Shown here: in pieces, positions 15,646-40,783 of the stretch
Numbering within the stretch: position 1 is the stretch's first letter
How the letters are laid out: each line of letters opens with the position of its first letter
From: Desulfobacula sp.
GTDB lineage: Bacteria > Desulfobacterota > Desulfobacteria > Desulfobacterales > Desulfobacteraceae
DNA: 40,783 nt
Assembly: GCF_030611305.1 (NCBI RefSeq)
Contig: NZ_JAUWQB010000027.1
Span: 1-40,783 of the forward strand
Direction of reading: 5' to 3'
Translations under genes and position numbers: made by a program
Notes under the pieces: model-generated
Told to the model about the DNA's origin: nothing
Databases searched by the model: none
What the model saw: the letters and a program-made list of their open reading frames with translations, nothing else

Positions 15646-15649
15646 ATCA

Positions 15650-21378: not shown

Positions 21379-21387
21379 GGAAAGATT

Positions 21388-23668: not shown

Positions 23669-23692
23669 CCTTTTTGTAAGGAGAAGGAACAA

Positions 23693-24523: not shown

Positions 24524-24604
24524 AGTCAAGGTAACAATTTACACAAAAAAAGATCAAAACAAAAAAACTGATAAATATAAAAAACCAATAAACAGGAGGA
24601 TAAT

Positions 24605-25387: not shown

Positions 25388-25442
25388 CAAAATTTAAAAC
25401 TAACCGGATTCAATTCCGATTTCATATAAGGAAAATAATATT

Positions 25443-26402
25443 ATGGCTAAAGTACTTGTAATAGCAGATATCAAACAAGGCGAACTAAAAGGCAGCACAG
25501 CTGAACTTTTATCAAAAGCCAAAGCCATTGGCGCAGAGACTGCTGTCGTGGCGATTGGTAGTAATATCGAATCATTGGCAAATGATCTGGCAAATGCCGG
25601 ATCAGATACCCAGTATATAGCAGATGATGCAAGTCTTGAACTTTTTTCAGCAGGACCTTATGCATCATGTGTCGTGGACGCAGCCAATCAATTTGAAGCC
25701 AACCTGATCTGGTTTGGTTTTTCCGAAGGCGGCAAGGCCATGGCGCCGAGAGTAGCAACCCAGCTGGAAGCTGCATGTGCAACAGAAATTACTGACATTG
25801 TGCTTGATGGAGATCAAATCGAGGTCATGCGACCTGCCATTGCAAATAAGGTAACGCAAAAAGTCAAAATCAATACGAAAAGACTTGTAGCCGTTATCAG
25901 AGCGGGTGCATTTGAGGCAGACGAAGGCATAAGCGGAACTGAAAATGTGGTTAAACTTACTGCCCCGGCAGCTGATTTAAAGGCCGTGATCAAAGAACTT
26001 GTTTCAGATGCCAGCGGAGAAATTGATCTTGCCGATGCCGACATCGTCATCTCAGTGGGGCGAGGCACTAAGGATCAGGCCGGTATAGATCTTGTAAAAG
26101 AACTGGCCAACGATCTTGCCGCAGGATTTGGTTCCTCCCGCGCCATGGTGGATGGTGGTTTCATGGCACATAACAAGCAAGTCGGACAAACCGGTAAAAT
26201 AGTCGCACCGACCCTTTATATGGCAATCGGTATCTCAGGCGCTATCCAGCATCTTGCAGGAATGAACGGCTCAAAAACGATCCTGGCTGTTAATAAAGAT
26301 CCTGAAGCACCCATCTTTAACGTGGCTGACTATGGTATTGTCGGAGACCTTTTTGAAGTGGTTCCGATTCTCCGTGAAGAGATTAATAAAATTAGAAGTT
26401 AG
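25443..26402 (+). CDS. etfA: Electron transfer flavoprotein alpha subunit
   Basis: A 319-residue EtfA. The N-terminal domain starts [30 protein letters not shown]. The FAD-binding C-terminal domain has [38 protein letters not shown], then [62 protein letters not shown], all hallmark motifs. It has no ferredoxin domain, so it is the simple non-fused form. An AAGGAAAATAATATT precedes the ATG. It ends 12 nt before the membrane oxidoreductase. Confidence 0.96.
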
Positions 26403-26414
26403 GAAGAGGTCCCC

Positions 26415-28523
26415 ATGAACCCACTTTTTATGTCTTTACTGCTTATTGTCGGGCTGGCGATTTTTAGCCGCACAATGGTTCAAAAAATCCAATTGCTTAT
26501 GGCACTTGAACCCACTGACCGGGCCAATCATATTACAGACCGGCTTAAGAATATGGTGGTTATCGCACTGGGTCAGAAACGACTGGTGGGAAGAAAAAAA
26601 GAGTGGGCTTCCGGTATCATGCACGCTTTCATCTTCTGGGGATTCTGCATCCTGTTAATCCGCAGCCTGAATTTATATGGAGAAGGATTTGTAAAAGGGT
26701 TTCAGCTGCCTTTATTTGGAGACGGGTCCATACTGGGATATCTCTATATCGCCTTAAAAGATATCATGGAAGGCATTGTTCTAGTGATGGCTGTTTATGC
26801 CATCTTTCGCAGGGCCGTTCTTAAGCCGGAACGACTGCACAATACCTGGGAAGCGTATTTTGTTCTGGGCATGATCGGGGTTTTGATGCTTTCCGATCTC
26901 TTACTCGATGGCGCCCGGTATAACTTAATTATGCTGCATAATAATCCAGAGCATCTTCATTTTTTTAATAATCCACTATATGGTTCCGAGTTTCTCTGGA
27001 CACCTGTTTCCGTGGGGGCGGCAAGCCTCATATCCGGCTTCAGTGCCGATGCCAACGGGCTTATCCTGACCACTATGTTCTGGCTGCATATCATCACCCA
27101 GTTGACCTTTCTTAATTTTCTGCCCTTTGGAAAACACTTTCATGTCATCACTGCACTTCCCAATGTGTTTTTAAAATCCCTGGGATATCCCCATGAAAAG
27201 ACCAAACTTTTAGATCTGGAAGATGAATCCGTGTGGGAAGATGAATCCTTAGGGATAAACCACATCCACCAGCTCAATTGGAAACAGGGACTGGATCTTT
27301 ACACCTGTACCGAGTGCGGCCGATGCAAAGAGGTCTGTCCCACGCATACCACTGACAAACCGTTAAATCTGCATGACTTCAATGATACACTGAAGGCTGA
27401 ACTCTTAGAGAATGCAGGCAACCTGATTAAAAGAGCAAAACTGGCCGCTACCATCAAAGAGGACGGCGACGCTGAAAAAAATGAAGAAATCAAAGCCCAA
27501 ATGGCCGAGCTCAACAGCAAAAAGCCGCTTATCGGTGATGTGATCACCGAAGACACGCTCTGGGCCTGCACCACCTGCCGGGCCTGTGAACAAGTCTGTC
27601 CGGTTACCATCGAGCATGTTCCCCGCATAATTGCCATGAGACAGGGACAGTCCTTGATGCAGGGAGTCTACCCCCAGGAGTTGAATGTGGCCCTTAAAGG
27701 ACTTGAGCGCAACGGCAATCCCTGGGGTATCGGGTATGACAAACGCGTTGACTGGGCAGACGGGTTAGACGTTAAAATCATGGCAAAAGATGCTGATGTC
27801 GACTATTTACTCTGGGTCGGCTGTGCCGGGTCTTTTGATGATCGAAGCAAAAAAGTATCCAAAAGCCTGGTCAAAATTCTACAGAAAGCCAATATCAGCT
27901 TTGCCATCCTGGGTAAGGAAGAAAAATGCACGGGTGATTTTGCCAGACGTGTCGGCAATGAGATGATGTACCAGATGATGGCTCAGGAAAACATTGAAAC
28001 CCTGAACAATTACAAGGTTAAAAAAATTATCGCAGCATGCCCTCATTGTCTCAATACGCTTAAACATGAATACCCGCAAATGGGCGGAAATTATGAGGTG
28101 ATCCATCATACGGATTTTATCGACCAGCTTATAAAATCCGGCAAAATCACCTTAAATAAATCATTTCAAGGCTCTTTGACTTACCATGATCCCTGCTATC
28201 TGGGGCGGTACAATTCAATTTATGATCAACCCAGATCGATTTTGCAGGCCTTATCAAAAGACGGGCTCAAAGAGCTTGATCGGCATGGCCGTGAAAGTTT
28301 TTGTTGCGGCGCCGGCGGCGGAAGAATGTGGATGGAGGAGACCATTGGTAAAAGAATCAATGTGGAACGATCAGAAGAAATTGCAGGTCAAAAAGCCGCA
28401 ACTGTGGCAGTGGCCTGCCCGTTCTGCCTGACCATGATTGAAGACGGCATGAAAGAGCTGGACAAAGACGAGGACATCAAGACACAGGATATCGCCGAAC
28501 TTGTGGCGAATAATATGGCGTGA
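26415..28523 (+). CDS. Membrane-bound FeS oxidoreductase, ETF:(mena)quinone oxidoreductase type (EMO-like)
   Basis: A 702-residue protein. The N-terminal third has membrane helices of NarI/heterodisulfide-reductase-gamma type (MSLLLIVGLAIFSRTM; GIMHAFIFWGFCILLI; and more up to about 240). The middle has two [4Fe-4S] motifs (CTECGRCKEVCP and CTTCRACEQVCP). The C-terminal half has two CCG domains (KCTGDFARR with CPHCLNTLKHEYP; YHDPCYLGRYN, FCCGAGGGRMWM, ACPFCLTM). This layout matches the ETF:methylmenaquinone oxidoreductases that feed electrons from reduced ETF to the quinone pool. Its place after etfBA supports that assignment. The cluster ends here; the next gene is convergent. Confidence 0.9.
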   Translation: MNPLFMSLLLIVGLAIFSRTMVQKIQLLMALEPTDRANHITDRLKNMVVIALGQKRLVGRKKEWASGIMHAFIFWGFCILLIRSLNLYGEGFVKGFQLPLFGDGSILGYLYIALKDIMEGIVLVMAVYAIFRRAVLKPERLHNTWEAYFVLGMIGVLMLSDLLLDGARYNLIMLHNNPEHLHFFNNPLYGSEFLWTPVSVGAASLISGFSADANGLILTTMFWLHIITQLTFLNFLPFGKHFHVITALPNVFLKSLGYPHEKTKLLDLEDESVWEDESLGINHIHQLNWKQGLDLYTCTECGRCKEVCPTHTTDKPLNLHDFNDTLKAELLENAGNLIKRAKLAATIKEDGDAEKNEEIKAQMAELNSKKPLIGDVITEDTLWACTTCRACEQVCPVTIEHVPRIIAMRQGQSLMQGVYPQELNVALKGLERNGNPWGIGYDKRVDWADGLDVKIMAKDADVDYLLWVGCAGSFDDRSKKVSKSLVKILQKANISFAILGKEEKCTGDFARRVGNEMMYQMMAQENIETLNNYKVKKIIAACPHCLNTLKHEYPQMGGNYEVIHHTDFIDQLIKSGKITLNKSFQGSLTYHDPCYLGRYNSIYDQPRSILQALSKDGLKELDRHGRESFCCGAGGGRMWMEETIGKRINVERSEEIAGQKAATVAVACPFCLTMIEDGMKELDKDEDIKTQDIAELVANNMA

Positions 28524-28561
28524 TTCTCTTAAACTGCGGACAAACACTTTTAGTTTCACTG

Positions 28562-29587
28562 CTATTTAGTTGATTGCACCCTTTTAATCATGTTTCCGAC
28601 ATCAACTGATGTGTTAATCCTTTTAAGGTGTACGTCAGGATGTTTGTTTGTAAAAACCCTGAATATCTGATCTGCAAATGCCTGACCGATCTGGGCGACA
28701 CCTTTGAAATCCAATATAACCTCAGTAAATCTGTCAAGTCGCGATATAAGCCGCTTTGCCTGTGATCTTGAAAGCAAAGACTCTCCCTCGTTTTGCATAA
28801 GCTCAACCAGAATAAGGGTTTTATGGAAACTCGGATCTTTATCCGGATCTGCATATTCATCAAAGATGTCCTTTAATAAAGTGGGTGAATCTTTTTTGAT
28901 TTCCATATTGACGGTGGTCCCCGGAAGATCGCGTTTTCTTTCCAACATGACCCCTTCATCATTTCCAAACCCGACAAAGGCTAACTCGTGTGAAAAAATG
29001 ACGAAGATATCAAACACCCTTGAAGTAAAAAAGATACCTTCCCCGGAGTGGTTTTCAGGATCAGAGGTGAATTTGCCCTTTGCCAGTTCTAAAATTGCCT
29101 GTTTTGGATGCTCCAAGCCCAGGTCGGTTTTTATTTTTTCAAAAATACCGATTCCATTATCAGACACTTGGAGTTTAAGCTTTAAATAATCAACAGATAG
29201 CTGAATCGTTATTGTGTTTGATTCTGAATGATCAATCACATTGTTGACCATTTCTGTAAAACCATATTGGCAAATTTCTTTTACATTGTTTTTAAGGTCT
29301 TTTAATAAAGGTGCCATGTCCTTTGACCATAGAATGTCTTCTTCTAAATGATTATTCTCATACTCCCAATTGTAAACAGTTTTAACCAATTGGTAATTGG
29401 GCAATTTATTTGATCCAAGTTTTTCGAGAATTTTGTCTTCAACCAGTTCATAAATATATTTATAAACAGTTGGTTTGGTAATCTGAAAATGCTTGCAAGT
29501 GATTTGTGTCAATGTGTTTGGGTTGTCGGAGACATGATTAATTATAAAGACTTTTATCATTTCGACAACTTCTTTTGTGAACTTCAT
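28562..29587 (-). CDS. HTH - GHKL ATPase - STAS-like (DUF4325) regulatory protein
   Basis: A 341-residue cytoplasmic protein in three parts. Residues 1-70 look like a winged helix (TQITCKHFQITKPTVYKYIYELVEDKILEKLG). Residues about 85-230 form a HATPase_c/GHKL domain with N-box TEMVNNVIDHSES, G1 VSDNGIG and G2 SGEGIFFTSRVF. Residues 255-335 match the STAS-like DUF4325 pattern (SLLSRSQAKRLISRLDRFTEVILDFKGVAQIGQAFADQIFRVF). No histidine phosphoacceptor box or receiver domain is seen. The order resembles anti-sigma or partner-switching kinases joined to their own antagonist domain. The target is unknown. It is convergent with the ETF oxidoreductase gene, 38 nt apart, and backs onto the insertion sequence. 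Confidence 0.82.
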   Translation of the reverse strand: MKFTKEVVEMIKVFIINHVSDNPNTLTQITCKHFQITKPTVYKYIYELVEDKILEKLGSNKLPNYQLVKTVYNWEYENNHLEEDILWSKDMAPLLKDLKNNVKEICQYGFTEMVNNVIDHSESNTITIQLSVDYLKLKLQVSDNGIGIFEKIKTDLGLEHPKQAILELAKGKFTSDPENHSGEGIFFTSRVFDIFVIFSHELAFVGFGNDEGVMLERKRDLPGTTVNMEIKKDSPTLLKDIFDEYADPDKDPSFHKTLILVELMQNEGESLLSRSQAKRLISRLDRFTEVILDFKGVAQIGQAFADQIFRVFTNKHPDVHLKRINTSVDVGNMIKRVQSTK

Positions 29588-29990
29588 CTTGATTTCCTAT
29601 GTTTTATTATAAAAATAAAAATGAAAATTTATATATAATGGTAAACATTAATATACAATTTGCAAAATGTAAAGTAAAAATAAGCTTAGGAGTTTTCCCT
29701 GATTGCAATTCTATGAAATCCCTATTATAACAGAAAATGACATGCTGTTTCGATCTTGCCTCCATTCTCGACAATGTAAGCGAAAGAGCGGAGCTGTGCC
29801 AGATAACAACAAGCTAAAAGATCAAGGCCATACTTATAACCAGACCTTTGAACAACTCATCGACTAAAACAACGAATTATTACAAAAACGAAATAAATTT
29901 ATTTTTAGATAACTAATTAAAATAATTGACTATTCATTCCATTTATGTTATTAAAATGACAATCAAAAGCATAAATGGAGGGACCTTTTA
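29588..29990. other. Gene-free stretch upstream of the transposase
   Basis: About 400 bp, AT-rich. The left part is the presumed promoter area of the minus-strand regulatory gene. Position 29841 onward is the presumed left end of the insertion sequence. The part around 29750-29835 is more GC-balanced but has stops in each frame I read; I recognise nothing in it. Confidence 0.5.
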
Positions 29991-31235
29991 ATGGGCTTTA
30001 AATCAAATCAAAAAAATCTAACATTCTCTGACTTAGAAAAATCGTTTAAAGACGAAAAGAACCGAAGTCTAAAAACCCTGATGAATTTAGAAAAAGTCAT
30101 TTCCTGGGATCGAATAGAATCAATACTCTTGAAAGACTATCCGGTTGGCCATAAGAGGGAAGGCAATAGAGCTTATCCTCCGTTGTTTCTGTTTAAATGC
30201 ATGTTACTTCAAAAATGATTCCGGGTCGGATCAGATCCGGAACTGGAGAATTTGATCAATGATCGTAAATCATTTCAGGTTTTTCTGGGCCTCTCTGCCC
30301 GGGAAGCATCTCCTGATCATTCAACTTTTTCAATTTTCAGGAAAAGACTTACAAAGGCTAAGTTCGATATGATAGTTGGAGATATTTTAAATCAATTTTC
30401 AGATAAGGGCCTTACCATTAATGAAGGAATCGCCATAGATGCCCGGATTGTTAAATCAGCCAGCAGGCCGGTTAGCAATAAAACCTTGGAAAAAATAAGA
30501 GTGAAAAGAGAAACACCTGAAGGGAAACTTGATAAAACCGGGAAGCCCTTAAAATTTGCCAGGGATATTGAATCCAATTGGACAATAAAAAACAAAAAAA
30601 ATTATTATGGACTAAAAGAACATGCATCTGTTGATGCAAAGTATGGATTTGTTCTTGCAACAGCTTTAAGCCCTGCTTCTGTTAATGACACGAATTATTT
30701 ACCATATTGCACTTTATATAGCCGTCACATCAAGCATGCTCTGGCGATTGTGTATGCGGATAAAGGATACGCAGGAGAGCCGAACCGAACATTCCTGGCC
30801 ATGAATAAACTCAAAGATGGAATCATGCGGAAGGATACCAAAACAGCAAAATTAACTGAGCATGAAATAGAGAGAAATAAAAAGATATCCAAAGTCAGAT
30901 ACATAGTCGAACAGTATTTTGGTTTAAGTCATCTTCATGACAATGGGCAAAGAGCAAGGTTTACGACCATAGATAAAAACAACATTGATATATGGTTCAG
31001 GCAAGTAGCATTTAATATAAAAAGAGGATTTAACATTTTTCAAAGGCTATCAACAGCATAGTTGCGTCCAAAGGCTCAAAAGAGCCATTTGGGAGGCTTT
31101 TGAGGTAAAAAATACAGAAATAATGTGGATTTTTATTGAAAATAAGTCAAAAATAAATCATTTTTAAGAAATTGTATTTGAATTTTAAATTTTACAAAAG
31201 AAAATAACTGGAATTGTAAATTAATCAAAGGTCTG
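29841..31235 (+). mobile_element. IS5-type insertion sequence (inactivated)
   Basis: The transposase gene is flanked by an 11-bp perfect inverted repeat, CAGACCTTTGA at 29841-29851 and TCAAAGGTCTG at 31225-31235, giving an element of about 1.4 kb. I could not find a clear target duplication, so the exact ends are uncertain. Confidence 0.6.
29991..31061 (+). pseudogene. IS5-family DDE transposase, broken by a nonsense codon
   Basis: Two in-frame pieces (29991-30218 and 30219-31061) together give a 356-codon IS5-type transposase. The N-terminal DUF772 region includes FLFKCMLLQK, then the stop, then FRVGSDPELENLINDRKSFQVFLGLS. Related proteins have Trp at the stop (LQKWFR), so TGG to TGA is the likely change. 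DDE landmarks follow: IAIDARIVKSAS, VYADKGYAG and the final glutamate region VRYIVEQYFGLSHLH. A GGAGGGACCTTTTA ribosome site precedes the ATG. No hairpin or context argues for readthrough. Confidence 0.85.
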
Positions 31236-31292
31236 ACCTTGTTGAAATTTTGAAAAAACTCACGTCCTAACATTTAGAGACTCGATCTAAGA

Positions 31293-31770
31293 TTATTTCA
31301 TGAGAAATATTCTTAGATCCATGACATTTGTATTGGGGGGGCCGGTTATGATTAGATCATCCAAAGAAGATAAAATTATTGTGTTATATCCCAGTGACTC
31401 AGCTTTGGCTCTGGCAGCGATGAGTGTATTAAAATTATTCCCGATGATAAGGTTCTTAACTTTTTTAAAATATGGATCATCAGGCTTGGGGGTTTCAGGA
31501 ATTTCACCTTTACACCCTTTATTAATATGATTCAGGACATTTTTTGGCAGGCTTAGGGCAATATTATATGAATCTATGATATTTTTACAATCTTCAAAAG
31601 TGCCTGTGTCGGGAACTGTAAGGCCTGAAGCTATGATATCAAGATCATCACCCACATGGTAAAGGTGAAAGCGCAGACCCGCCACCTGAAATAAGGCAGA
31701 AAACAAGAGTTTTTTCATGGGCATTTTTTGCCATGTCAAAAAGTTTTTCTGCTATATAACGGGTTCTAAA
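31293..31770 (-). pseudogene. Decayed glycerate 2-kinase (GckA/MOFRL family) relic
   Basis: Pieces of a glycerate 2-kinase remain in order but in different frames. Near 31660-31760 one frame reads AEKLFDMAKNAHEKTLVF and the signature CLISGGGSALSPLPCG, then stops. From about 31650 another frame continues with GDDLDIIASGLTVPDTGTF and ETPKPDDPYFKKVKNLIIGNN, both typical of the family. After LGYNTIILSS it jumps to the family's C-terminal end, DLIITGPPNTNVMDLRIFLM. So the N-terminus and at least two internal segments are deleted. The 148-codon open frame is therefore not an intact gene. It lies between the insertion sequence and the amino-acid operon. Confidence 0.78.
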
Positions 31771-31815
31771 AAGGGCCGGCTACCAGAAAAACTTTGGCAA
31801 ATGATCTATATGGTC

Positions 31816-33951
31816 TCAGCTGAGCCATATTTTTTTGTGCATCTCCACATAAACCGATAGCGCCTCCAATGCCATTGGCATGATCTTTTCACCATAACCG
31901 ACGCGAAAATATCCACTGTCGTCTGTGCCATATTCCGAAAATACATAAGCGGGTTTTATTGAAATCCCCGATTTAGCCAGTTGTTCACCAAGCTCATCAG
32001 ACGATAGAGGCCCCTTAAATTTCACGTAAGCACTCGCCCCCGCACTTGGTCGCACCCATTCAAATAGATCACTATATTTTTCGATGAATCGATCTAACAG
32101 CTCAATATTATACCTAATAATTTTTAAATTTTTTTCAAGAATTTTATCACTGGCACGCAACGTCATGATCGCCTGGATTTCACTGGCACGACCAGGGCAA
32201 GCCGTCCCAAAATATTGAGTATCAATGATTTTTTGCCTAAGATCAAGATCCTGCAATGCCAACCAGCCAATCGTTATGCCACATCCGCCCCATGGTTTTG
32301 ATAATGTAACGGCACTTATCCCTTTTTCGTAGAAATCAGCCATTGCCGGAAGTCGATCGTCGGCATTATGCTCTAGCAAACGATAAACCTCATCCGAAAG
32401 AACATAAATATCATTTGCCTCGGCTATATTTTTAAGCTGCTGCTGCACCTTATGGCTCATCAAAGTACCAGTAGGATTAGAAGGCTCATTGATAACGATA
32501 TATTTCGTATTTTTCTGAACCGCGGCTTCTACCACCTCAGGATTTATCTGCCAATTAGTTTCCGGATGGAGACAAATTCTGGTCAACTGACTGCCTGCGC
32601 GGGCCGGTGCTTCCTGAACGGATTGGTAGCTAGGCGTAAATACGATTGAATGACAATCTTTGTCTAACAAGGCACTCGCGGCGGTTTGCAGCGCCACTTG
32701 TGCACCTGGAAAGACTACAATATTTTCCGCTTCAATATCCGGGCCATAAAGCCCTGCTATTTCTTCACGAAGATCTATACTCCCTCCGTTAGGCGTATAA
32801 ATCAGTGAATGTTTATTATATTGTTCTACAATATCGAGATCGCCTCTATCAAGCGACAGATTGATCAGCTCTTCACTATCAAGTGGCTCGGCAAAAGAAT
32901 TCGACAGATTAAATGGCGTGTTTGCCGTTACGGATTTATGTCTTTTGGACCATGGTTCTTTATATGTCATATTGTTTGATTTTCTTAATATATATTTTTC
33001 GTCCTCAAGCTTTTTTAGCAGTGCCTGGGCCGGTTTTTGGGAAATGAGAATATATTTATTATCTGGATACTGTTTTGCGCTGTGCGATGTCATCGTTATA
33101 CTGGTCACAAGTCGCATCGCCATCAGATAATATAGTATATCAATTTCAGCTTCTTCCAACGGGAATTCTTTGGTGTAACCATCTATAATATTGTTCGTCG
33201 CCATTTGGATATCATCTTCCCCCAGCAGTGAATAGGCAAGCGTAATTGCAAGGTCATTAATCTGTGTTCCATACTGTATTTCACCAAAATCTATCAATCC
33301 GGCTATTTTGTTTGGTTGATCCGGCAGGATTAGAAAATTGTGCTCGTTGGCGTCACCATGAAGGATAGCTTTTCGTAAATTCTGCAACTTAGGCCTTATG
33401 CTTTTTTCATACTCTTCATATAGCCGGGTAATACGGTTCCGGGCATCTTCATCAATAACATCGGGTAGATAGGCTTTGCACGCTAGGACATTATCAAGTT
33501 TCCATAATGCGTCTGAGCCTTCCTGGCCGGGATGAGAAAAGCCTTGCATGGCATTTGAAAACTGACCCAGGAAGCACCCGATATCATGGTAAAGTTCTGG
33601 ACTTCTCCTCATGTTTCCCAATACATCGCCTTCAAGAAAAGTAAGGAGCCGTACAGCAAACCCGTCGATAAAGATTATTTTTTCCCCCTTCAATGACTGT
33701 ACAACGCTGGGGAATGTCATATTTGGCGCGACATTTTTTAAATGTTCAAGCACTTTAGTCTGCATTTTTACAAACTCAAGATCCCATCTTTTATTGGCTA
33801 TCTTAATTACAAATTTATCTTTTGGCGTCTTGATTAAGGCATTTTGATCTTCGTAAGAGACGAAAGAAGCGATCTCCCCTTTGAGGCCATAATGTTCCTT
33901 GGCAATTTTAGCAAGGGCCTGCTCATCAAAATTCGGCACCTGGTATGTCAT
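31816..33951 (-). CDS. Fusion of APH/hydroxylysine-kinase-like kinase with fold-type I PLP aminotransferase or lyase
   Basis: A 711-residue two-domain enzyme. Residues 1-325 are an aminoglycoside-phosphotransferase-fold kinase resembling hydroxylysine kinases (YGLKGEIASFVSYEDQN, FVIKIAN). The catalytic loop is HGDANEHN (198-205, Asp200) and the metal site is IDFG (220-223). Residues about 340-711 are a class I/II aminotransferase-like domain with NEPSNPTG (488-495), SDEVYR (519-524) and PLP lysine K552 (TLSKPWGGCGITIGWLA). A GAGGATCGT site precedes the ATG. It is the last gene of the operon, after the threonine-synthase-like gene. Substrate phosphorylation plus PLP chemistry on an imported hydroxy- or substituted amino acid is inferred; the true substrate is unknown. 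Confidence 0.88.
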   Translation of the reverse strand: MTYQVPNFDEQALAKIAKEHYGLKGEIASFVSYEDQNALIKTPKDKFVIKIANKRWDLEFVKMQTKVLEHLKNVAPNMTFPSVVQSLKGEKIIFIDGFAVRLLTFLEGDVLGNMRRSPELYHDIGCFLGQFSNAMQGFSHPGQEGSDALWKLDNVLACKAYLPDVIDEDARNRITRLYEEYEKSIRPKLQNLRKAILHGDANEHNFLILPDQPNKIAGLIDFGEIQYGTQINDLAITLAYSLLGEDDIQMATNNIIDGYTKEFPLEEAEIDILYYLMAMRLVTSITMTSHSAKQYPDNKYILISQKPAQALLKKLEDEKYILRKSNNMTYKEPWSKRHKSVTANTPFNLSNSFAEPLDSEELINLSLDRGDLDIVEQYNKHSLIYTPNGGSIDLREEIAGLYGPDIEAENIVVFPGAQVALQTAASALLDKDCHSIVFTPSYQSVQEAPARAGSQLTRICLHPETNWQINPEVVEAAVQKNTKYIVINEPSNPTGTLMSHKVQQQLKNIAEANDIYVLSDEVYRLLEHNADDRLPAMADFYEKGISAVTLSKPWGGCGITIGWLALQDLDLRQKIIDTQYFGTACPGRASEIQAIMTLRASDKILEKNLKIIRYNIELLDRFIEKYSDLFEWVRPSAGASAYVKFKGPLSSDELGEQLAKSGISIKPAYVFSEYGTDDSGYFRVGYGEKIMPMALEALSVYVEMHKKIWLS

Positions 33952-34028
33952 ACGATCCTCATATTAAAATGATTTAGGTATAACTTCGAATCTCCTATAC
34001 CGATTGTCCAGCCGTTAAAGCATTATAC

Positions 34029-35480
34029 CTATTTCGAATCCGAAACTCTTGTTATGGCTTCCACCAGGGCAAATTCCAGGTTTTCAAAATCACATAACCT
34101 GAGATGCTGACAGACTTTACCTGCCTTAACCAGCGAAGAATGGACGGCCTGGTTTGGAAGTTCATCACCTTCTAAACGTAAAATTTTTCTCATTACATCG
34201 GGAAATTTGGCCGGGTGCGCTGTCGCCATACAAATGATTTTACCGGATTCAGGCAACTTGTCTTTAAGCTCTTCAACCGCAGCGACGGCCACAGCAGCAT
34301 GGGGATCGAGAAGATAGTGAGATCCATTGTTAAATGTCTGGTTTATGGTTTGGGCGGTTTTCTCCTCTGATATGGAAACAGAAAGAAAACCTTCCTGAAA
34401 AGAAGCAGCGGTTTTCTCATCAAATTTAATTTCACCTTTGTCAAAGAATTCATCCATCCAGGCTTTTAGTTTAGTACTGTCGCTTCCGGAAGAAAAATAC
34501 AATAATCGCCAGAAATTATAAGGCACGACAATATCAATGGCAGATGAAAAAGTTTCAATCAGGTCTTTTTTAGCAAAAACACCTTTTGAAAAAGCTGTAT
34601 GCAATGCGGCATTTTTGTTGTTGGCGCAGATAAATTTTTCAACGGGCAATCCCATTGCGCGAGCCAGATAACCACCAAAACCATTCCCGAAAGCGCCCGA
34701 GGGAATCGAGAAAGTCACCTTGTCTCCCACCTTGTCCACAACCTTAAAATAACCGTAGAAATAATGTACGGCCTGGACCATCACTCTACACCAGTTTATA
34801 GAATTCACACTGGTAATCTTCATTCGTTCCCTTAATTCTACATCACCGAACAGTTTGGATAACACAAAATCAAGATCATCTCCGCCATCAGCGCAGTTTT
34901 CCACGCTCAAAGGATGAACATTGGCAGCATTTAATGTCGTCATCTGGCGGGCCTGTTCCTCTGATATCATCCCTGTTGGATAAAGCGGCCAGCAGTCAAT
35001 CGTCTTTTTCCCTGCTGCAGCATAGGCTGCGGCCGGCCCGGTATCCCCTGTGGTCGCAAGTAGAATGGACAAATGTTCATTTTTGTTTTGCAGGAAGTAG
35101 TCCATGATATTTATTAAAAAATTCATGGCAATATCTTTAAACGAAAGCGTGGGGCCATGAAACAATTCCATGATAAATGTATCGGTTTTTTTGTCAAAGG
35201 GTATGACAGGAATGATATCCGGGCTCTCAAAGTTGCTGAAACTTTTTTTGAGTAAGTTTTTTAAATCTGCAGCCGGAATGATTGATTCGTCCACGTATAA
35301 CCGCAATAACTCAAAGGCTAGGTCAGTGTATCCTAAATCAGCCCACTGCTCCATTTGGTTTTTTGAAACTACGGGGATGTATTCCGGAACGAAAAGGCCC
35401 CCATCTTTGGCATAACCTTGCAATACCGCTTCATCAAAAGTTACTGGTGAAATACCACCCCTTGTACTGACAAATTTCAT
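34029..35480 (-). CDS. Threonine synthase-like PLP enzyme
   Basis: A 483-residue protein of the E. coli/yeast-type threonine synthase family. It opens MKFVSTRGGISPVTFDEAVLQGYAKDGGLFVPE and has the PLP lysine K115 in ELFHGPTLSFKD, with the phosphate-binding loop TTGDTGPAAAYAAAG (the family usually has SGDTG). SVNSINWCRVMVQAVHYFYGY and SIPSGAFGNGFGGYLARAMGLPV are also typical. It is longer than E. coli ThrC (428). Threonine synthases turn O-phosphohomoserine into threonine; relatives (THNSL2 type) act as phospho-lyases. The place between an ABC importer and a kinase-aminotransferase fusion suggests a catabolic role with a phosphorylated amino acid. The symbol thrC is withheld for that reason. 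Confidence 0.88.
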   Translation of the reverse strand: MKFVSTRGGISPVTFDEAVLQGYAKDGGLFVPEYIPVVSKNQMEQWADLGYTDLAFELLRLYVDESIIPAADLKNLLKKSFSNFESPDIIPVIPFDKKTDTFIMELFHGPTLSFKDIAMNFLINIMDYFLQNKNEHLSILLATTGDTGPAAAYAAAGKKTIDCWPLYPTGMISEEQARQMTTLNAANVHPLSVENCADGGDDLDFVLSKLFGDVELRERMKITSVNSINWCRVMVQAVHYFYGYFKVVDKVGDKVTFSIPSGAFGNGFGGYLARAMGLPVEKFICANNKNAALHTAFSKGVFAKKDLIETFSSAIDIVVPYNFWRLLYFSSGSDSTKLKAWMDEFFDKGEIKFDEKTAASFQEGFLSVSISEEKTAQTINQTFNNGSHYLLDPHAAVAVAAVEELKDKLPESGKIICMATAHPAKFPDVMRKILRLEGDELPNQAVHSSLVKAGKVCQHLRLCDFENLEFALVEAITRVSDSK

Positions 35481-35524
35481 AATACTACTTCCTCCAATCT
35501 ATTACAAAAATAATATCCTTTGAC

Positions 35525-36277
35525 TCAATGAGAGAGAATCTGGCTGAGAAAGGCTTTAGTGCGTTTGCTTTCCGGATTGTTGAAGAATTCATCAGGCGGC
35601 TTCATTTCGACAATTTCACCGCTATCCATGAAAACTATACTGTCGGCGACCGACCGGGCAAAACCCATTTCGTGGGTGACACAGATCATTGTCAAACCTT
35701 CATTTGCAAGATCAATCATTACATCGAGAACCTCACTGATCATTTCCGGATCCAATGCAGATGTCGGTTCGTCAAAGAGCATTACTTCAGGGTTCATACA
35801 AAGCGCACGGGCTATGGCAACACGTTGCTGCTGTCCTCCCGAGAGCTGGATCGGGTATTTATCGGCCTGCTCGGGTATTTGAACACGTTCGAGAAAACCC
35901 ATGGCTACTTCCCGAGCCTTTGACTTGTTCATCTTTCGCACCAGTTTGAGGGCCAGCATCAAATTGTTAATGACCGTCAAATGCGGGAATAAGTTGAAAT
36001 TCTGGAACACCATCCCGACTTCACTACGAACGGCATCAATGTCTTTGACCTCATTTGTCAGTTCACGACCGGAAATAATTATTTTACCGCTGTCATGCTC
36101 TTCAAGCCGGTTGATACAGCGGATCATGGTTGATTTACCTGATCCTGAAGGTCCGCACACCACAATTTTTTCACCTTTGTTTACCTGCAAGTTGATATTG
36201 TTCAGTGCCTGGAAGTCTCCAAAGGATTTGCAGACATCCTGCAGTATTATTTTAGCTTCGTTGTCGTTATCCTTCAT
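35525..36277 (-). CDS. Polar amino acid ABC transporter ATP-binding protein
   Basis: A 250-residue ATPase of the HisP/GlnQ type. Motifs are Walker [11 protein letters not shown]-loop [13 protein letters not shown], signature [15 protein letters not shown], Walker [16 protein letters not shown] and switch [11 protein letters not shown] choose the ATG at 36275-36277 (MKDNDNEAK) because AAGGAG lies just before it; the longer frame to 36310 contains that ribosome site. It powers the two permeases encoded immediately upstream. The importer class carries amino acids, often basic or acidic ones. Confidence 0.93.
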
Positions 36278-36361
36278 ACTACTCCTTAAATTTTTATCTT
36301 TAATTTTCATACTGCTTTGGCTTAAAAATTAATACAAACTTTTTGGCTTTGGTCTGCATGG

Positions 36362-37051
36362 TTATGGTTTGACATATCGGCTCATGTACTTCTCAAACCT
36401 GCCAAAGCCGCGTTGAATAAAAAATGTCATCACCATATAGATGATCGCAGCAGAGATGAAAATCTCATAGGGTGCAAAAGTTTCGGCTACAATAGTACGT
36501 GATGCACCTGTCATATCGAGCAAGGTAATCGTACTGGCCAAGGAGGTGGCCTTGAGCAGACTTATGAAGTCGTTGCTGTAGGCCGGGATGGCAATCCTGA
36601 CTGCAATGGGGGTCGTAACGTAAACAAACCGATGCAGTTTCGACAGTCCAAGGGCCATGCCCGCTTCATGCAGTTCACGTTGAACACCCAGATACCCCCC
36701 CCGAAGAATTTCCGAAACATAGGCACCCGTATTTAGAGTAAGGGCGAGGGTTGCACAGCCGAATGGTTCACGAAGGATCGGCCAGAATACACTGTCCCGA
36801 ATGAACTCAAACTGTGGGAAGCCGTGGTAGATGACAAAAATTTGAACCAGAATAGGTGTCCCCCTGAAAAAGTATATGTAGATAAATGCGGGCAGGGAAA
36901 GATACCAGCGGCCACTGATGCGCATCAATAGAAGAAAAATACCCAGGGATAAGCCCAGAACTGCTGACAGAAACAAAAGCTGCAGTGTAACCCCAAGGCC
37001 GGTCAGCATTTTAGGGATGCTTTCAAGGATGAGATATATTTGAAGATTCAT
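36362..37051 (-). CDS. Polar amino acid ABC transporter permease (second)
   Basis: A 229-residue HisM/GlnP-type permease with about five helices. It carries the characteristic FRGTPILVQIFVIYHG and the EAA loop EILRGGYLGVQRELHEAGMALGLSKLHRF. A transport-domain helix region follows (PAYSNDFISLLKATSLAST). It overlaps the other permease gene by 4 nt, so the two are coupled and presumably form a heterodimer. Confidence 0.92.
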   Translation of the reverse strand: MNLQIYLILESIPKMLTGLGVTLQLLFLSAVLGLSLGIFLLLMRISGRWYLSLPAFIYIYFFRGTPILVQIFVIYHGFPQFEFIRDSVFWPILREPFGCATLALTLNTGAYVSEILRGGYLGVQRELHEAGMALGLSKLHRFVYVTTPIAVRIAIPAYSNDFISLLKATSLASTITLLDMTGASRTIVAETFAPYEIFISAAIIYMVMTFFIQRGFGRFEKYMSRYVKP

Positions 37052-37743
37052 TTGGCAACCTCCAGATGGCGATTAGCGTGTTTCTCCAGGAGCATCACAA
37101 CCATTGTAATGACAGTGGTAATGCTAAGATAAATTAAAGCCACGATCATGTACATTGTAAACGGCTTGAGGGTCACTGCCGTGGCCATTTCTGCAACAAA
37201 AAGGATCTCTTCAAGCCCTATGATTGAAATTAATGCCGTATCCTTCATTATTGAAAGCATATGATTGCCGAATGCAGGCAGGGCTAAACGCCACATCTGG
37301 GGTATCCTGACATAAAAGAACGTGTGCAGGTTCGAAATCCCCAAAGCTCTGGAAGCCTCGACAATCCCTGGATCAACACCCATAAAAGCCCCTCGAAACG
37401 TCTCGGTTGCGTATGAACCAACTATCAAACCGATGGAAAGGGAACCGGCCCAGAAAGGAGGGATATCGACAAACGGCATTTGGGGGAAAAATATCTGCAC
37501 GATTTTAGTCAACGCAATAGCGGAACCATAGTAAAAAAGCAATAGAACCAGTATCTCCGGCGTTCCACGAAAGGTGATTGTATAGGCGTTGGCTATTTTA
37601 TTGGCAATACGGTTTTTTGACAGTTTGGCGCTGGCCCCCATCAATCCGAAAATTACTGCCATGGTCAAGGAGACACCAAAAACCTTTAGAACTACCATTG
37701 CGCCCCAAAAATAGTCGTCCAACCACCCGGATAGCTCTGCCAT
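37048..37743 (-). CDS. Polar amino acid ABC transporter permease (first)
   Basis: A 231-residue HisQ/ArtQ-type permease. It includes TFRGTPEILVLLLFYYG and the EAA loop ATETFRGAFMGVDPGIVEASRALGISNLHTFFYVRIPQMWRLALPAFGNH. I choose the ATG at 37741-37743 (MAELSGWLDDYFW), which has GAGGAAGGAAACGGCT before it. The longer frame (to 37809) begins with an unlikely histidine-rich peptide. It lies about 140 nt after the receptor gene. Confidence 0.9.
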   Translation of the reverse strand: MAELSGWLDDYFWGAMVVLKVFGVSLTMAVIFGLMGASAKLSKNRIANKIANAYTITFRGTPEILVLLLFYYGSAIALTKIVQIFFPQMPFVDIPPFWAGSLSIGLIVGSYATETFRGAFMGVDPGIVEASRALGISNLHTFFYVRIPQMWRLALPAFGNHMLSIMKDTALISIIGLEEILFVAEMATAVTLKPFTMYMIVALIYLSITTVITMVVMLLEKHANRHLEVAK

Positions 37744-37883
37744 AGCCGTTTCCTTCCTCTGATCGAGGTATCTATGCCTGGTATGACCGCGATGGTCACA
37801 CCCAGGCATGTTTTGTTAATTTGCGAGTACAAAAAAGCAATGGAGTCGGCCGGTGCCAACTCCAACGTATCAGTTATAGATTT

Positions 37884-38702
37884 TTATTCGCCAACACCCT
37901 CCCAATTTTCATTGTGGATGGCAAAGGGGAAGTATTTCAGGGAGTATTTTTCCAAAGAGCCGTTTTTAATCAGTTCCGCCAGAGCATTGTTGATGCGCTT
38001 GAGCAGATCCTCCCGATCTTTGGCAATCCCTACTCCGACACCGATGCCGAATAATTTGGGGTCATCCAGCGCCGGGCTGACAAATTCGAATTTTTTGCCC
38101 TTTTCCTTGCTGAGAAATTTAAGAAAGGCCTTCATGGGATTGGTCATGATGATATCCGTTCGGCCGTTCTGAAGATCAAGATATAAGGCCTCGTTAGTAT
38201 CATACAGCATAACATTGGCATTGGGTACGTTCGTTTCAACCCAGTTTGCATAGGTTGTGGCACGCTCAAGACCTAGTTTGAGGCCCTTGAAATTGGCTGG
38301 ATTGGGGGAACCGTCTTTATTGAAAAGATTGAGATTTGCATCTTTCTTGCCCACAAACCGACCCACGGAAATCCGGTATGGAATCGAGAAGTCTATTTTT
38401 TGCTTTCGCTTATCGGTTATGGACATGGATGCTATGACTAAATCAAACTTATTGGCCAGGAGGGCTGGAATCATACCGTCCCACTTCTGGCAAACAAAGG
38501 TGACGTCGGCACCGATGATCTCCATGATACCCCTGGCAACATCAATGTCGTAGCCGGTAAGCACACCATCAGCCGTGCGATAGTTAAATGGGAAATAGGT
38601 GCATTCCGATCCAACACGCAGCTTTTCTGCTGCTGCTGGTTGCACGAGTCCGCCTGCACCAAATACTAGGATTGCCGTTGCTAAAAGAAAAAACTTTTTC
38701 AT
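37884..38702 (-). CDS. Basic-amino-acid-type ABC transporter substrate-binding protein
   Basis: A 272-residue receptor (SBP family 3). The signal peptide is MKKFFLLATAILVFGAGGLVQPAAA. The mature part reads LRVGSECTYFPFNYRTADGVLTGYDIDVARGIMEIIGADVTFVCQKWDGMIPALLANKFDLVIASMSITDKRKQKIDFSIPYRIS. The segment WDGMIPALLANKFDLVIASMSIT is typical of lysine/arginine/ornithine/octopine-type receptors, so a basic or guanidino amino acid is the likely ligand class; this is inference. AGGGGGTATTAGAA precedes the ATG. It is the receptor for the permease pair and ATPase downstream. Confidence 0.92.
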   Translation of the reverse strand: MKKFFLLATAILVFGAGGLVQPAAAEKLRVGSECTYFPFNYRTADGVLTGYDIDVARGIMEIIGADVTFVCQKWDGMIPALLANKFDLVIASMSITDKRKQKIDFSIPYRISVGRFVGKKDANLNLFNKDGSPNPANFKGLKLGLERATTYANWVETNVPNANVMLYDTNEALYLDLQNGRTDIIMTNPMKAFLKFLSKEKGKKFEFVSPALDDPKLFGIGVGVGIAKDREDLLKRINNALAELIKNGSLEKYSLKYFPFAIHNENWEGVGE

Positions 38703-38853
38703 TTCTAATACCCCCTGTGTCTTGTTTTAGTTTCCATATTCCCGACATAAAGTTTTAGTAATAAATATCACAATCATTACTATTGCCCTTTTGTCCACCT
38801 CCAAGGAGGACCTGATCGGGATAAATCACATATGTTTTCATAACCAATGTTTC

Positions 38854-39819
38854 CTATACACTGCCAACATCAGATTGGTTCAGGGCTTTGTGGACCGCCT
38901 TGGCAATCTGAATATCCTGTACCGCAACACCGGTCAAATCAGCCACGGTTATCTGCTCAGCAGATGTCCGTCCGGATTGATGACCGGCAATCACATCCCC
39001 CAGTTCAATGAGATCTTCTTTTTTTAACAGACTTGCCTGTAGTGCTTTGAAAATTTCACCCCGGGACAAACATTGCTCTATACTGTCAGCCACCACTATA
39101 TCGGCTTTTTGAAGAATTTTAGGGTCTAACTCCTGCTTTTGGGAGGTATCAGAGCCCATGGCCGTGATGTGGGTACCCGGTTTTATCTGCTTAACATCCA
39201 TAAGCGGGGTCTGTGAGGGCGTAGACGTAATGATCAGGCGGCATTTTTCTGTTATGTCACCAGCATCCCGGGTTGTCTGGACATTAAATCCTATTTTTTC
39301 CATATCTTGCTTGTATGTTTCAAAATCATCCTGTGGCAACCCCCAGACCATGACACTGCGGCAATCGACAACCGTCTTTAGATACTCAACCTGCATCCGG
39401 CCTTGAACCCCTGTTCCAAAGACACCGATGCAGTCAATTTCAGGCGGGGCCATATATTTTGAAACAATCTGACCCGCCACTGCAGTCCTGACATTGGTGA
39501 GATAACATTCATCAAGCAAAATACTCGCCAGTTTTCCATCCCGCTGGGAAAACAGCAATATGAGCCCGTCACTGGTGGGCAGGTCGATTTTATAATTTTC
39601 ATAAAATCCAGAGGCAATCTTGATGGCAAAGTAGTCGTCATCTTTAATATACCCGTATTTAATATGGACATCAGCCGGTGGGTTTTCGAAGATCAGTTCG
39701 CCCACGGGGGGAACAACCACCCGGCCCTGTGAATAGGCCACAAACCCTTCTTCGATGAAAGGTAAAAAATCAATCTGCTTTACAACACTTTTTATTTGCT
39801 CTAAATTAAATATCTGCAT
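38854..39819 (-). CDS. Ornithine cyclodeaminase / mu-crystallin family protein
   Basis: A 321-residue NAD(P)-binding enzyme. Landmarks are the N-terminal QIFNLEQIKSVV, VHIKYGYIKDD with KIASGF, the core LLDECYLTNVRTAVAG, the Rossmann motif GVFGTGVQGRMQVEYL, LIITSTPSQTPLM and GTHITAMGSDTSQKQELDP. The family includes ornithine cyclodeaminases, ketimine reductases, alanine dehydrogenases and EutC-like enzymes, so substrate cannot be assigned. I choose the ATG at 39817-39819, because AGGAG lies 8 nt before it; a TTG one codon earlier is also possible. It follows the regulator gene by 45 nt and is likely cotranscribed. Confidence 0.88.
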   Translation of the reverse strand: MQIFNLEQIKSVVKQIDFLPFIEEGFVAYSQGRVVVPPVGELIFENPPADVHIKYGYIKDDDYFAIKIASGFYENYKIDLPTSDGLILLFSQRDGKLASILLDECYLTNVRTAVAGQIVSKYMAPPEIDCIGVFGTGVQGRMQVEYLKTVVDCRSVMVWGLPQDDFETYKQDMEKIGFNVQTTRDAGDITEKCRLIITSTPSQTPLMDVKQIKPGTHITAMGSDTSQKQELDPKILQKADIVVADSIEQCLSRGEIFKALQASLLKKEDLIELGDVIAGHQSGRTSAEQITVADLTGVAVQDIQIAKAVHKALNQSDVGSV

Positions 39820-39864
39820 CAATCTTTCTCCTGATTTTATGCCTGCATAATAATTTGCGGCCTG

Positions 39865-40512
39865 TTAGAGTCCGACGAGGATATCGGAGGTTTTCTTTTT
39901 TTTTCTAATTTCACTGAGGCCTTTGTATATGGTCGCCCTTGATATCCCAAGATAGGCAGCCACCTGCTCTGCCGATTTTCTTGCATAAAAAAGACCTTTT
40001 TTATCAAGGTGTAAAAGCAACGCTTTCCGTCCCTGAACATCCAGGTTTTCTTTTGTCTGTCCTTGTTCTTTTAAATATGATCGGATCGCCGAAAGGGTCA
40101 CTTCCAGCCATTCATTTCGGAACAGAATTTCCGGGCGGGGTTCTTCGTTCATTGGATTGAAAAATCTCCTAACAACCGATAGGGAGGATTCAAGAATTGA
40201 GAAATCAAGGTTGATGCACATGAGCCCTCTTGGGTTTCCCTTATCATCCTTCAGCACTGAGGTAATCGATCGAACACTTTGTCCCTTTGTCCCAACTTTT
40301 TCATATGGACCAATCACATCTTCTTCCAGGTCGAAATTCTGCGCTCCGATTTTCAAATTTGAAGAATCACCCAACTGCCTGCCGGAGTAAGGATTGGCAA
40401 TATAGAAGATTGTATCATCTTCAATGTCATGAATTACAATTTCAGCATGGGGACGAAAAAGTTCAGCAAGAGCGTCTGCAATAGATATGTATTGTGATAG
40501 GTTGCATGTCAT
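39865..40512 (-). CDS. YheO/DauR-like PAS-HTH transcriptional regulator
   Basis: A 215-residue regulator. An N-terminal YheO-type PAS domain (AELFRPHAEIVIHDIEDDTIFYIANPYSGRQLGD ... RSITSVLKDDKGNPRGLMCINLDFS) senses a small ligand. The C-terminal helix-turn-helix is HLDKKGLFYARKSAEQVAAYLGISRATIYKGLSEIRKK. The family includes DauR, the repressor of D-arginine utilisation. I choose the ATG at 40510-40512, because AAAGGA precedes it; the TTG at 40542 has no ribosome site. It probably controls the amino-acid operon that follows. An inverted repeat (GTCAA-N11-TTGAC) lies upstream at 40529-40549. Confidence 0.88.
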   Translation of the reverse strand: MTCNLSQYISIADALAELFRPHAEIVIHDIEDDTIFYIANPYSGRQLGDSSNLKIGAQNFDLEEDVIGPYEKVGTKGQSVRSITSVLKDDKGNPRGLMCINLDFSILESSLSVVRRFFNPMNEEPRPEILFRNEWLEVTLSAIRSYLKEQGQTKENLDVQGRKALLLHLDKKGLFYARKSAEQVAAYLGISRATIYKGLSEIRKKKKTSDILVGL

Positions 40513-40528
40513 TTGAAATCCTTTGTAA

Positions 40529-40549
40529 GTCAATTTGTCCAATTTTGAC
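40529..40549. promoter_or_regulatory. Possible operator of the regulator gene
   Basis: GTCAA (40529-40533) and TTGAC (40545-40549) are inverted, with an 11-nt spacer, 16 nt before the chosen start of the YheO/DauR-like regulator. The rest of the region up to 40783 is AT-rich and has no recognised gene. An autoregulatory site is a guess. Confidence 0.4.
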
Positions 40550-40783
40550 TTTTTGTCTTATAAAATTACATTCATTTTGTTCGCAGTCAAGGAGTATTTA
40601 CATAATTTTTCTAATTTTCTATCCATAATTGATATTCTTCCGACCTAACCCAAGTTCGTCATTTTTTTAAAAATCAAGGCTAATTTTATCAAAAAACCAT
40701 GGGGTTGAAAATATAACGCACTGTATTTATTATATTTATTTTTTTGCTCGTCAATGTAGTGACCCATAGATTAATTTTATTGT

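What the first reader, a model, noticed from the sequence alone, without database searches (positions are those of the whole stretch)
31816..40512. Candidate undescribed amino-acid catabolic operon
Nine genes in one direction: PAS-HTH regulator, ornithine-cyclodeaminase-like enzyme, basic-amino-acid-type ABC importer, threonine-synthase-like enzyme, kinase-PLP fusion. One coherent model is that the PLP domain releases homoserine from an O-substituted homoserine such as canavanine, the kinase forms O-phosphohomoserine and the threonine-synthase-like enzyme gives threonine or 2-oxobutyrate. A second model is hydroxylysine phosphorylation and phosphate elimination. Both are inference.
Basis: inference. 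Interest (0 to 1): 0.7.

Follow-up and report, generated by a model that had tools for sequence, protein, structure and literature searches.

The report
Amino-acid operon with threonine-synthase look-alike
This stretch encodes an importer and a set of enzymes that probably add phosphate to an unusual amino acid and then break it down; the core gene set recurs in distant bacteria, but the compound it consumes is still unknown.

Summary
Seven of the eight recur on Sinorhizobium meliloti pSymA (ThrC2 58%, receptor 60%, OCD 59%, transporter 64-67%). ThrC2 is a distinct clade with 13 diagnostic columns; it keeps the motif NSxNxxR, and the genome holds a second thrC. In three of four family relatives with ThrC2 the next ORF is a homoserine-kinase-like kinase, only 21-23% identical to the window kinase. 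In a Porticoccaceae MAG, kinase+PLP and OCD+ThrC2 occur as two separate pairs. The canavanine step is not supported: the PLP domain lacks GntC's gamma-hydroxyl and guanidinium residues, and S. meliloti has the same receptor pocket with no PLP gene annotated in its operon. The pocket (E11, E117, R118, Y122, N161) matches neither LAO nor the opine receptors. Best model: phosphorylation of a homoserine-type amino acid, phosphate elimination by ThrC2, imine reduction by OCD. Substrate unresolved.

The parts
39865..40542 (-). YheO-type PAS_6 + HTH_22 regulator (start ATG 40512 or TTG 40542)
   Evidence: Pfam PAS_6 2e-24, HTH_22 5e-13; same two domains in the S. meliloti pSymA regulator; 49-51% homologs beside OCD-ThrC2 in G887 and G861
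38854..39822 (-). OCD/mu-crystallin-family enzyme, probably imino-acid reductase
   Evidence: NCBIfam PRK06823 413 bits (cut-off 438), PRK08291 309, EutC 262, alanine dehydrogenase 216; best solved chain alanine dehydrogenase 1omo 157 bits, ornithine cyclodeaminase 1u7h 46 bits
37884..38702 (-). Family-3 solute receptor with a distinctive pocket (E11 Y14 W52 E117 R118 Y122 N161, LAO numbering)
   Evidence: SBP_bac_3; three 59-62% orthologs (S. meliloti, two Shinella) agree with it at all 17 pocket positions examined except 120, T or S
37841..37864 (-). Terminator-like hairpin just after the receptor gene (possibly an attenuator within the transporter operon)
   Evidence: consensus scan; fold z-score -3.4
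37048..37809 (-). ABC permease, HisQ/ArtQ type (the true start may lie inside the ORF)
   Evidence: BPD_transp_1; HisQ 176 bits; 66% to S. meliloti
36362..37051 (-). ABC permease, HisM/ArtM type
   Evidence: HisM 161 bits; 64% to S. meliloti
35525..36310 (-). ABC ATPase, polar-amino-acid type
   Evidence: GlnQ 307 bits, below cut-off 379; 67% to S. meliloti
34029..35480 (-). ThrC2: threonine-synthase-like fold-II PLP enzyme of a separate clade
   Evidence: TIGR00260 212 bits over cut-off 167; 13 diagnostic columns, NSxNxxR and SFKD lysine kept
32971..33951 (-). Kinase domain (APH fold; HGDANEHN and IDFG motifs)
   Evidence: APH 2e-22; PRK06148 249 bits; AF2 model pLDDT 86.8, best PDB fold and sequence match homoserine kinase 2ppq
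31816..32970 (-). Class-I/II PLP domain, fused to the kinase here, separate gene in L006 and L007
   Evidence: Aminotran_1_2 3e-31; PRK07324 215, GntC 199 bits, both below cut-off; fusion junction compared

Best explanation
A YheO-type regulator controls import and breakdown of a cationic, homoserine-type (hydroxyl- or O-substituted) amino acid. The kinase phosphorylates the side-chain hydroxyl. ThrC2, a threonine-synthase paralogue that has kept its substrate-phosphate motif but changed other conserved residues, eliminates the phosphate to give an enamine/2-imino acid (hydrolysed to a 2-oxo acid such as 2-oxobutyrate, or reduced). The OCD-family enzyme reduces or otherwise handles that imino acid. 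The PLP domain fused to the kinase is a second alpha-amine-activating eliminase or lyase, acting either upstream (freeing the hydroxy-amino acid) or in parallel. Shown: gene content, conservation, clade status, retained motifs, operon linkage. Inferred: every reaction, the order of steps and the substrate class.
For: Regulator, OCD and ThrC2 recur together in G861, G887 and S. meliloti. In three of four other ThrC2 genomes of the own family the ORF directly after ThrC2 is a homoserine-kinase-II-like kinase (G887, G902, G903), and in the window that slot holds a non-orthologous APH kinase (21-23% identity over the aligned parts): the kinase activity is what the slot seems to conserve. The Porticoccaceae MAG G149 has kinase+PLP on one contig and OCD+ThrC2 on another; in a search of 274 genomes of its class, with G149 as the centre, it alone had a ThrC2 match at E 1e-105 or better. 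All three genomes found with kinase+PLP (G000, G148, G149) have an OCD of 48% identity or more to the window's (in G000 the window's own); none of the other seven genomes searched exceeded 34%. NSxNxxR is kept in 7 of 7 ThrC2. A second thrC is over the cut-off in 5 of 6 ThrC2 genomes searched. The closest solved structure to the kinase by sequence and by fold is homoserine kinase 2ppq.
Against: S. meliloti and G861 have ThrC2 and OCD without an adjacent kinase, and G861 had no match to the homoserine-kinase-like protein anywhere; S. meliloti has a HisN-type phosphatase there instead, which this model does not explain. G902 and G903 have no OCD next to ThrC2 in their short contigs. Kordiimonadaceae G148 has kinase+PLP and the OCD but no ThrC2 match at that threshold (a MAG, and no positive control in that search). 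The homoserine-kinase-like proteins score below the curated cut-offs (152-162 of 271 and 105-126 of 256 bits). A homoserine-only substrate does not explain a receptor with two glutamates in its pocket. The PLP domain's role is not pinned down.
Confidence: 0.45

Rival explanations
1. One reading: canavanine (or another O-substituted homoserine) is imported; the PLP domain gamma-cleaves it to homoserine, the kinase makes O-phosphohomoserine, ThrC2 makes threonine or 2-oxobutyrate.
For: Homoserine-kinase-like partner of ThrC2 in relatives; a PLP canavanine gamma-lyase giving homoserine and hydroxyguanidine exists (passages of PMC10018355); the PLP domain is in the GntC/VioD/PRK07324 neighbourhood.
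Against: GntC's gamma-hydroxyl and guanidinium residues are not kept; the receptor has the same pocket in S. meliloti, whose operon has no PLP gene annotated; receptor N161 replaces LAO Asp161, which binds the alpha-ammonium (passages of PMC5740067), odd for an arginine analogue; no RNA family hit in 28000-40783. The canavanine gamma-lyase sequence itself was not available to compare.
Confidence: 0.12
2. One reading: 5-hydroxylysine is phosphorylated and phosphate eliminated, as by mammalian hydroxylysine kinase and phospholyase.
For: The window kinase is nearest to PRK06148/PRK06149 kinase domains that are fused to aminotransferases; cationic-type receptor.
Against: A class-I PLP enzyme or ThrC2 acting on the alpha-amine cannot readily expel a delta-phosphate (chemical argument, own knowledge); in three relatives the kinase slot is homoserine-kinase-like.
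Confidence: 0.1
3. Biosynthetic reading by analogy with SbnA/SbnB: ThrC2 joins a phospho-amino acid to an amine donor and the OCD enzyme releases a diamino acid such as 2,4- or 2,3-diaminobutyrate.
For: Fold-II PLP enzyme plus OCD-family enzyme is the SbnA/SbnB arrangement (recalled); the OCD enzyme matches SbnB at 94 bits.
Against: OCD matches PRK06823, EutC and alanine dehydrogenase far better than SbnB; linked importer; no peptide-synthetase-like ORF noticed by eye in the ORF lists of the window.
Confidence: 0.1
4. The imported compound is a cationic phosphodiester of a hydroxy-amino acid (lombricine-like); ThrC2 eliminates the phosphodiester and the HisN/IMPase removes phosphate from the leaving group.
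For: The pocket has two glutamates plus an arginine beside the second one (E11, E117, R118); IMPase-type genes sit with the transporter in S. meliloti and Shinella; OCD resembles alanine dehydrogenase.
Against: Does not explain kinases in the window and family relatives; the window has no phosphatase in the operon; ligand is pure inference.
Confidence: 0.08
5. ThrC2 is merely a threonine-synthase isozyme that has joined an ordinary basic-amino-acid uptake operon, with no common pathway.
For: TIGR00260 score over cut-off; NSxNxxR motif kept; in G903 (87% complete) it is the only match over the cut-off.
Against: 13 diagnostic columns, including the PSGNFG asparagine, separate the clade from six canonical enzymes; repeated linkage to OCD and regulator.
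Confidence: 0.12

Closest known systems
S. meliloti pSymA locus annotated thrC (strain M162; probably SMa0483-SMa0495 of strain 1021, my assignment from tag numbers)
   Same: YheO-type regulator, receptor, two permeases, ATPase, OCD, ThrC2 as neighbours at 35-67% identity
   Different: No kinase or PLP gene in the annotation; OCD lies after the ATPase; a hisN-type phosphatase follows ThrC2; pathway not described in the passages read
Homoserine kinase + threonine synthase (ThrB/ThrC)
   Same: Kinase of APH/homoserine-kinase fold beside a ThrC-family enzyme with the NSxNxxR motif
   Different: Kinase not orthologous to ThrB, ThrC2 clade diverged, another thrC elsewhere in the genome, linked to importer and OCD
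PLP eliminase + OCD-family enzyme pairs (EutB/EutC, BhcB/BhcD, SbnA/SbnB; pairing recalled)
   Same: Fold-II PLP enzyme coupled to an OCD-family enzyme; OCD scores 262 bits to EutC and 167 to BhcD
   Different: The eliminase is ThrC-derived and linked to a kinase
Kinase-M23-class-III aminotransferase proteins (PRK06148/PRK06149)
   Same: Kinase domain 249 bits, fused to a PLP domain; one such protein, recognised by eye, is in the same genome (L056)
   Different: Here the PLP partner is class I/II and there is no M23 domain
GntC / VioD cyclases and PRK07324 aminotransferases
   Same: Fold and PLP-binding residues (Lys, Asp, Asn, Arg)
   Different: Below cut-offs (199 of 415, 120 of 391, 215 of 476 bits); GntC side-chain residues lost

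Membership tests
Threonine synthase (TIGR00260) | Score over curated cut-off | tested here: met
   212 bits, cut-off 167
Threonine synthase (TIGR00260) | Conserved columns of canonical enzymes | tested here: not met
   SFKD lysine and NSxNxxR kept, but 13 columns separate 7 ThrC2 from 6 canonical sequences (one residue in at least 6 of 7 against another in at least 5 of 6), including A/G for N at 263 in PSGNFG and W for E at 324
Threonine synthase (TIGR00260) | Converts O-phosphohomoserine to threonine | not testable with these tools
   needs assay
Homoserine kinase II (TIGR00938/PRK05231) | Score over curated cut-off (window kinase) | tested here: not met
   44 of 255.9 and 63 of 271 bits
Homoserine kinase II (TIGR00938/PRK05231) | Score over curated cut-off (kinases after ThrC2 in G887, G902, G903) | tested here: not met
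   105-126 of 255.9, 152-162 of 271 bits; PRK05231 is the best family of each nonetheless
PRK06148 kinase-M23-aminotransferase | Full-length architecture and cut-off | tested here: not met
   249 of 1128 bits, N-terminal kinase part only
GntC (NF041364) | Cut-off and side-chain residues N52, T84, H250, S26 | tested here: not met
   199 of 415 bits; Y, Q, G, F at those positions in the window (residues from named sections of PMC10367076)
Canavanine utilisation operon | Canavanine gamma-lyase orthology; tRNA deacylase CtdA next to it | tested here: inconclusive
Opine receptor OccJ | Signature Glu30-Tyr33-Trp71-Ser91-Arg96-Gln159-Asn111-Thr163-Ala164-Asn202 (PMC5740067, passages) | tested here: not met
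   E, Y, W, S, R, T, N kept; Gln159 is E, Asn111 is G, Ala164 is Y
LAO/ArgT receptor | Asp11, Phe52, Leu117, Gln122, Asp161 | tested here: not met
   E, W, E, Y, N
Ornithine cyclodeaminase proper | Close match to characterised OCD | tested here: not met
   1u7h 46 bits against 157 for alanine dehydrogenase 1omo

The most novel reading that the evidence does not exclude
An undescribed, oxygen-independent catabolic route in which a gamma-hydroxy or O-substituted cationic amino acid is activated by phosphorylation, its phosphate eliminated by a new ThrC-derived phospho-amino-acid lyase, and the imine taken by an OCD-family reductase. It would be spread by gene transfer between this anaerobe-like lineage, rhizobia and marine Proteobacteria, with the kinase slot refilled by unrelated kinases.
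Probability: 0.35. Interest if true: 0.62.

Novelty: new variant of a known kind. Interest (0 to 1): 0.46.

Why it matters
Genes scored as threonine synthase over the curated cut-off fall into a separate clade here, so some annotated thrC genes, including the one on S. meliloti pSymA, may not be threonine synthases. If the model is right it gives a function to a transporter whose receptor is probably SMa0495, an sRNA target in a model symbiont (PMC8844928, passages; the identification is mine), adds a member to the PLP-eliminase-plus-OCD theme, and shows one operon slot filled by two unrelated APH kinases, which helps assign substrates in a large family annotated only as phosphotransferase. 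It can be tested in a laboratory strain.

Tried and rejected
Viral contigs: one scan for the fusion protein found no relative. Rfam: no match up to E 0.5 in 28000-40783. RNA fold of 145 nt between OCD and receptor: z -0.54, ordinary. Opine import: first attractive from N161, weakened by E117, Y122 and G92. GntC-like guanidine chemistry: rejected as a membership claim. G126 as a ThrC2 member (43%): rejected, it has the canonical residue at all 13 columns. G918 (30%) likewise not counted. Shinella PLP beside the same transporter: only 30% to the window PLP and on a long branch, so not counted as the same enzyme. PLP-OCD pairs: of 18 further PLP loci looked at, 6 have an OCD next to the PLP gene (G298, Priestia, Streptomyces, Shinella pShin-08, Agrobacterium, Rhizobium etli) and 12 do not; the loci were my choice from hit lists and several of those OCDs are on long branches, so they are background only. 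OCD tree: weakly resolved, with a long-branch warning. Paper searches: 10 used, over open-licence PMC only; those on SbnA/SbnB, an OCD imine reductase and threonine-synthase-like phospho-lyase gave nothing useful. Only (locus tags) addressed this locus itself; I therefore make no firm claim that it is not in print.

Fetched but not read: L047-L049, L053, L057, L071, L073, L102-L104.
Full report
What is there. The window lies on contig C115 of a 3.57 Mb, 159-contig genome, 97% complete. The tools give it no name; from genes read by eye elsewhere in the window I take it for a strictly anaerobic Desulfobacterota-like bacterium. On the - strand eight ORFs follow each other with gaps of 42, 151, 74, -4, 51, 44 and 77 bases: regulator, OCD, receptor, two permeases, ATPase, ThrC2, kinase-PLP. 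Families are given.

Conservation. Among plasmids, ThrC2 relatives at 56-58% identity are all Sinorhizobium: 34 of the 60 listed records (68 matched at E 1e-40, 8 not listed). The other 26 are at 37.3% or less; the five of these that I aligned with ThrC2 (S. meliloti pSymB, Deinococcus, Sphingomonas, Paroceanicella, Bacteroides) have canonical residues at nearly all diagnostic columns. On pSymA of S. meliloti M162 its neighbours are, in order, a divergent YheO-type regulator, receptor, permease, permease, ATPase, OCD, thrC and hisN (that gene table is known to be incomplete). Identities to the window: ThrC2 58, ATPase 67, permeases 64 and 66, receptor 60, OCD 59, regulator 35%. No kinase or PLP gene is annotated there. 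In the own family, ThrC2 occurs in 5 of 47 genomes searched (own included; 2 of 26 in the genus): patchy. G861 and G887 have regulator-OCD-ThrC2 side by side; G887, G902 and G903 have a homoserine-kinase-like gene directly after ThrC2; G861 does not. None of these four has the importer next to it in the stretches read, two of which are contigs of only 9-10 kb. An IS-type transposase and a glycerate-kinase remnant flank the window's cluster. ThrC2 and OCD are as close to Sinorhizobium as to family members (58 against 54-60% and 59 against 56%), though the regulator is not (35 against 49-51%). I read this as horizontal spread (inference).

Kinase-PLP. Both halves occur together in the window, in a Kordiimonadaceae MAG (PLP1-kinase-PLP2; another contig holds what looks like the rest of PLP2, then an APC-type permease, named by eye) and in a Porticoccaceae MAG (kinase-PLP): 2 of the 5 relatives found in one scan of the genome collection. 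In these two MAGs they are separate genes; in the window the kinase stop is lost and a few codons link them. In 148 genomes of the own phylum the own match scored 1618 bits and the next best, to the PLP half alone, 171 bits. In 289 genomes of the class of G148, three had a match at E 1e-60 and only G148 had both halves. The Porticoccaceae genome G149 also carries OCD+ThrC2 on another contig; with G149 as centre it alone of 274 genomes of its class had a ThrC2 match at E 1e-105. G148 has the OCD (51%) but no ThrC2 match at that threshold, nor has any of the 385 genomes of its class searched (no positive control in that set). So two of three kinase-PLP genomes have ThrC2 and three of three have the OCD. 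A fourth genome with a kinase of 58% identity, G150, is cut by a contig end and had no OCD match.

ThrC2 as a clade. Seven ThrC2 sequences share 41-65% identity among themselves and 33-41% with six canonical enzymes; 13 columns are diagnostic (one residue in at least 6 of 7 against another in at least 5 of 6, no overlap). The SFKD lysine and NSxNxxR are kept in 7 of 7; my pattern for the latter, which fixes the residue before it, matched 5 of 6 canonical. That NSxNxxR binds the substrate phosphate is recalled, not from a call. Five of six ThrC2 genomes searched have another thrC over the cut-off; the exception, G903, is 87% complete.

Kinase. HGDANEHN and IDFG are intact in the window. Family: PRK06148. 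The predicted structure (pLDDT 86.8) matches homoserine kinase 2ppq best (TM 0.76-0.79), as does the sequence (E 3e-7). Only two solved sequences matched at all at E 0.01, so this is not specificity. The kinases in G887, G902 and G903 share 48-55% with each other and 21-23% with the window kinase over the aligned parts.

PLP domain. It forms a supported clade with the Porticoccaceae and Kordiimonadaceae enzymes (100/99). It keeps cofactor residues but not GntC's side-chain residues. Elsewhere, of 18 further PLP loci looked at, 6 have an OCD gene beside the PLP gene and 3 a YheO-type regulator, so a PLP-OCD relation exists outside this operon but is not general.

Receptor. Four proteins (window, S. 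meliloti, two Shinella) agree at all 17 pocket positions examined except 120, which is T or S; the window differs from LAO at 11, 52, 69, 90, 92, 117-120, 122 and 161. A 43% relative from an OCD-PLP locus of Shinella differs from the window at 11, 92, 117, 119, 120 and 161, and the Agrobacterium and R. etli receptors of such loci (27%) at most positions. LAO Asp161 and Ser72 bind the alpha-ammonium, and OccJ has Asn202 in place of Asp161 (PMC5740067, passages). I infer a cationic ligand with an unusual alpha-amine environment or a second anion. The S. meliloti receptor is probably SMa0495, a target of the AbcR sRNAs (PMC8844928, passages), and the phosphatase SMa0483 (PMC3272708, one passage); no call ties these tags to the coordinates, I infer it from tag order and annotation.

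Reading. The kinase slot after ThrC2, filled by two unrelated kinases, and the retained motif make a kinase-to-ThrC2 step the best-supported inference. OCD, nearest to alanine dehydrogenase and imine reductases among solved chains, would take the imino acid. The HisN-type phosphatase of S. meliloti and Shinella is unexplained.

Weaknesses. Many genomes are MAGs; neighbourhood counts are small and not independent; no reaction was tested; alignments and trees use few sequences.

Noticed in passing
window 30252-31739: IS-type transposase ORF (30252-31061 +, by eye) and a glycerate 2-kinase remnant (31293-31739 -, DUF4147 end only) next to the cluster, pointing to an insertion site.
   Followed up: partly
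window 9581-28523: Genes resembling anaerobic benzoyl-CoA ring-opening enzymes (dehydrogenase, oxo-hydrolase, BamB-like oxidoreductase), heterodisulfide-reductase-like and NADH-dehydrogenase-like subunits, and electron-transfer flavoproteins; read by eye from the ORF list.
   Followed up: no
L056 7658-9505: The same genome carries what looks like a kinase-M23-class-III aminotransferase protein (PRK06148 type, by eye) whose kinase is 27% identical to the window kinase.
   Followed up: partly
L078 6288-9015: Streptomyces plasmid three-gene set: YheO-type regulator, class-I PLP enzyme, OCD, the last two overlapping; similar PLP genes at 53-61% in own-family genomes G861, G887 and G903, on other contigs than ThrC2.
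   Followed up: partly
L074 11684-16774 and L081 7684-12767: Shinella plasmids pair the same receptor/transporter with a divergent GntC-like PLP gene and an inositol-monophosphatase-type gene.
   Followed up: partly
L045 8574-9044 and L105 15287-15754: RidA-family genes near the kinase-PLP genes in Kordiimonadaceae (identified by eye) and near the OCD-PLP-receptor cluster in Rhizobium etli (annotated), fitting an imine-producing PLP step.
   Followed up: no
window 37841-37864: Strong terminator-like hairpin directly after the receptor gene, as in transporter operons that make excess receptor.
   Followed up: yes
window 28562-29587: ORF with a winged-helix-like N-terminus, a histidine-kinase-type ATPase region and a C-terminal domain (by eye), upstream of the transposase; not identified.
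   Followed up: no
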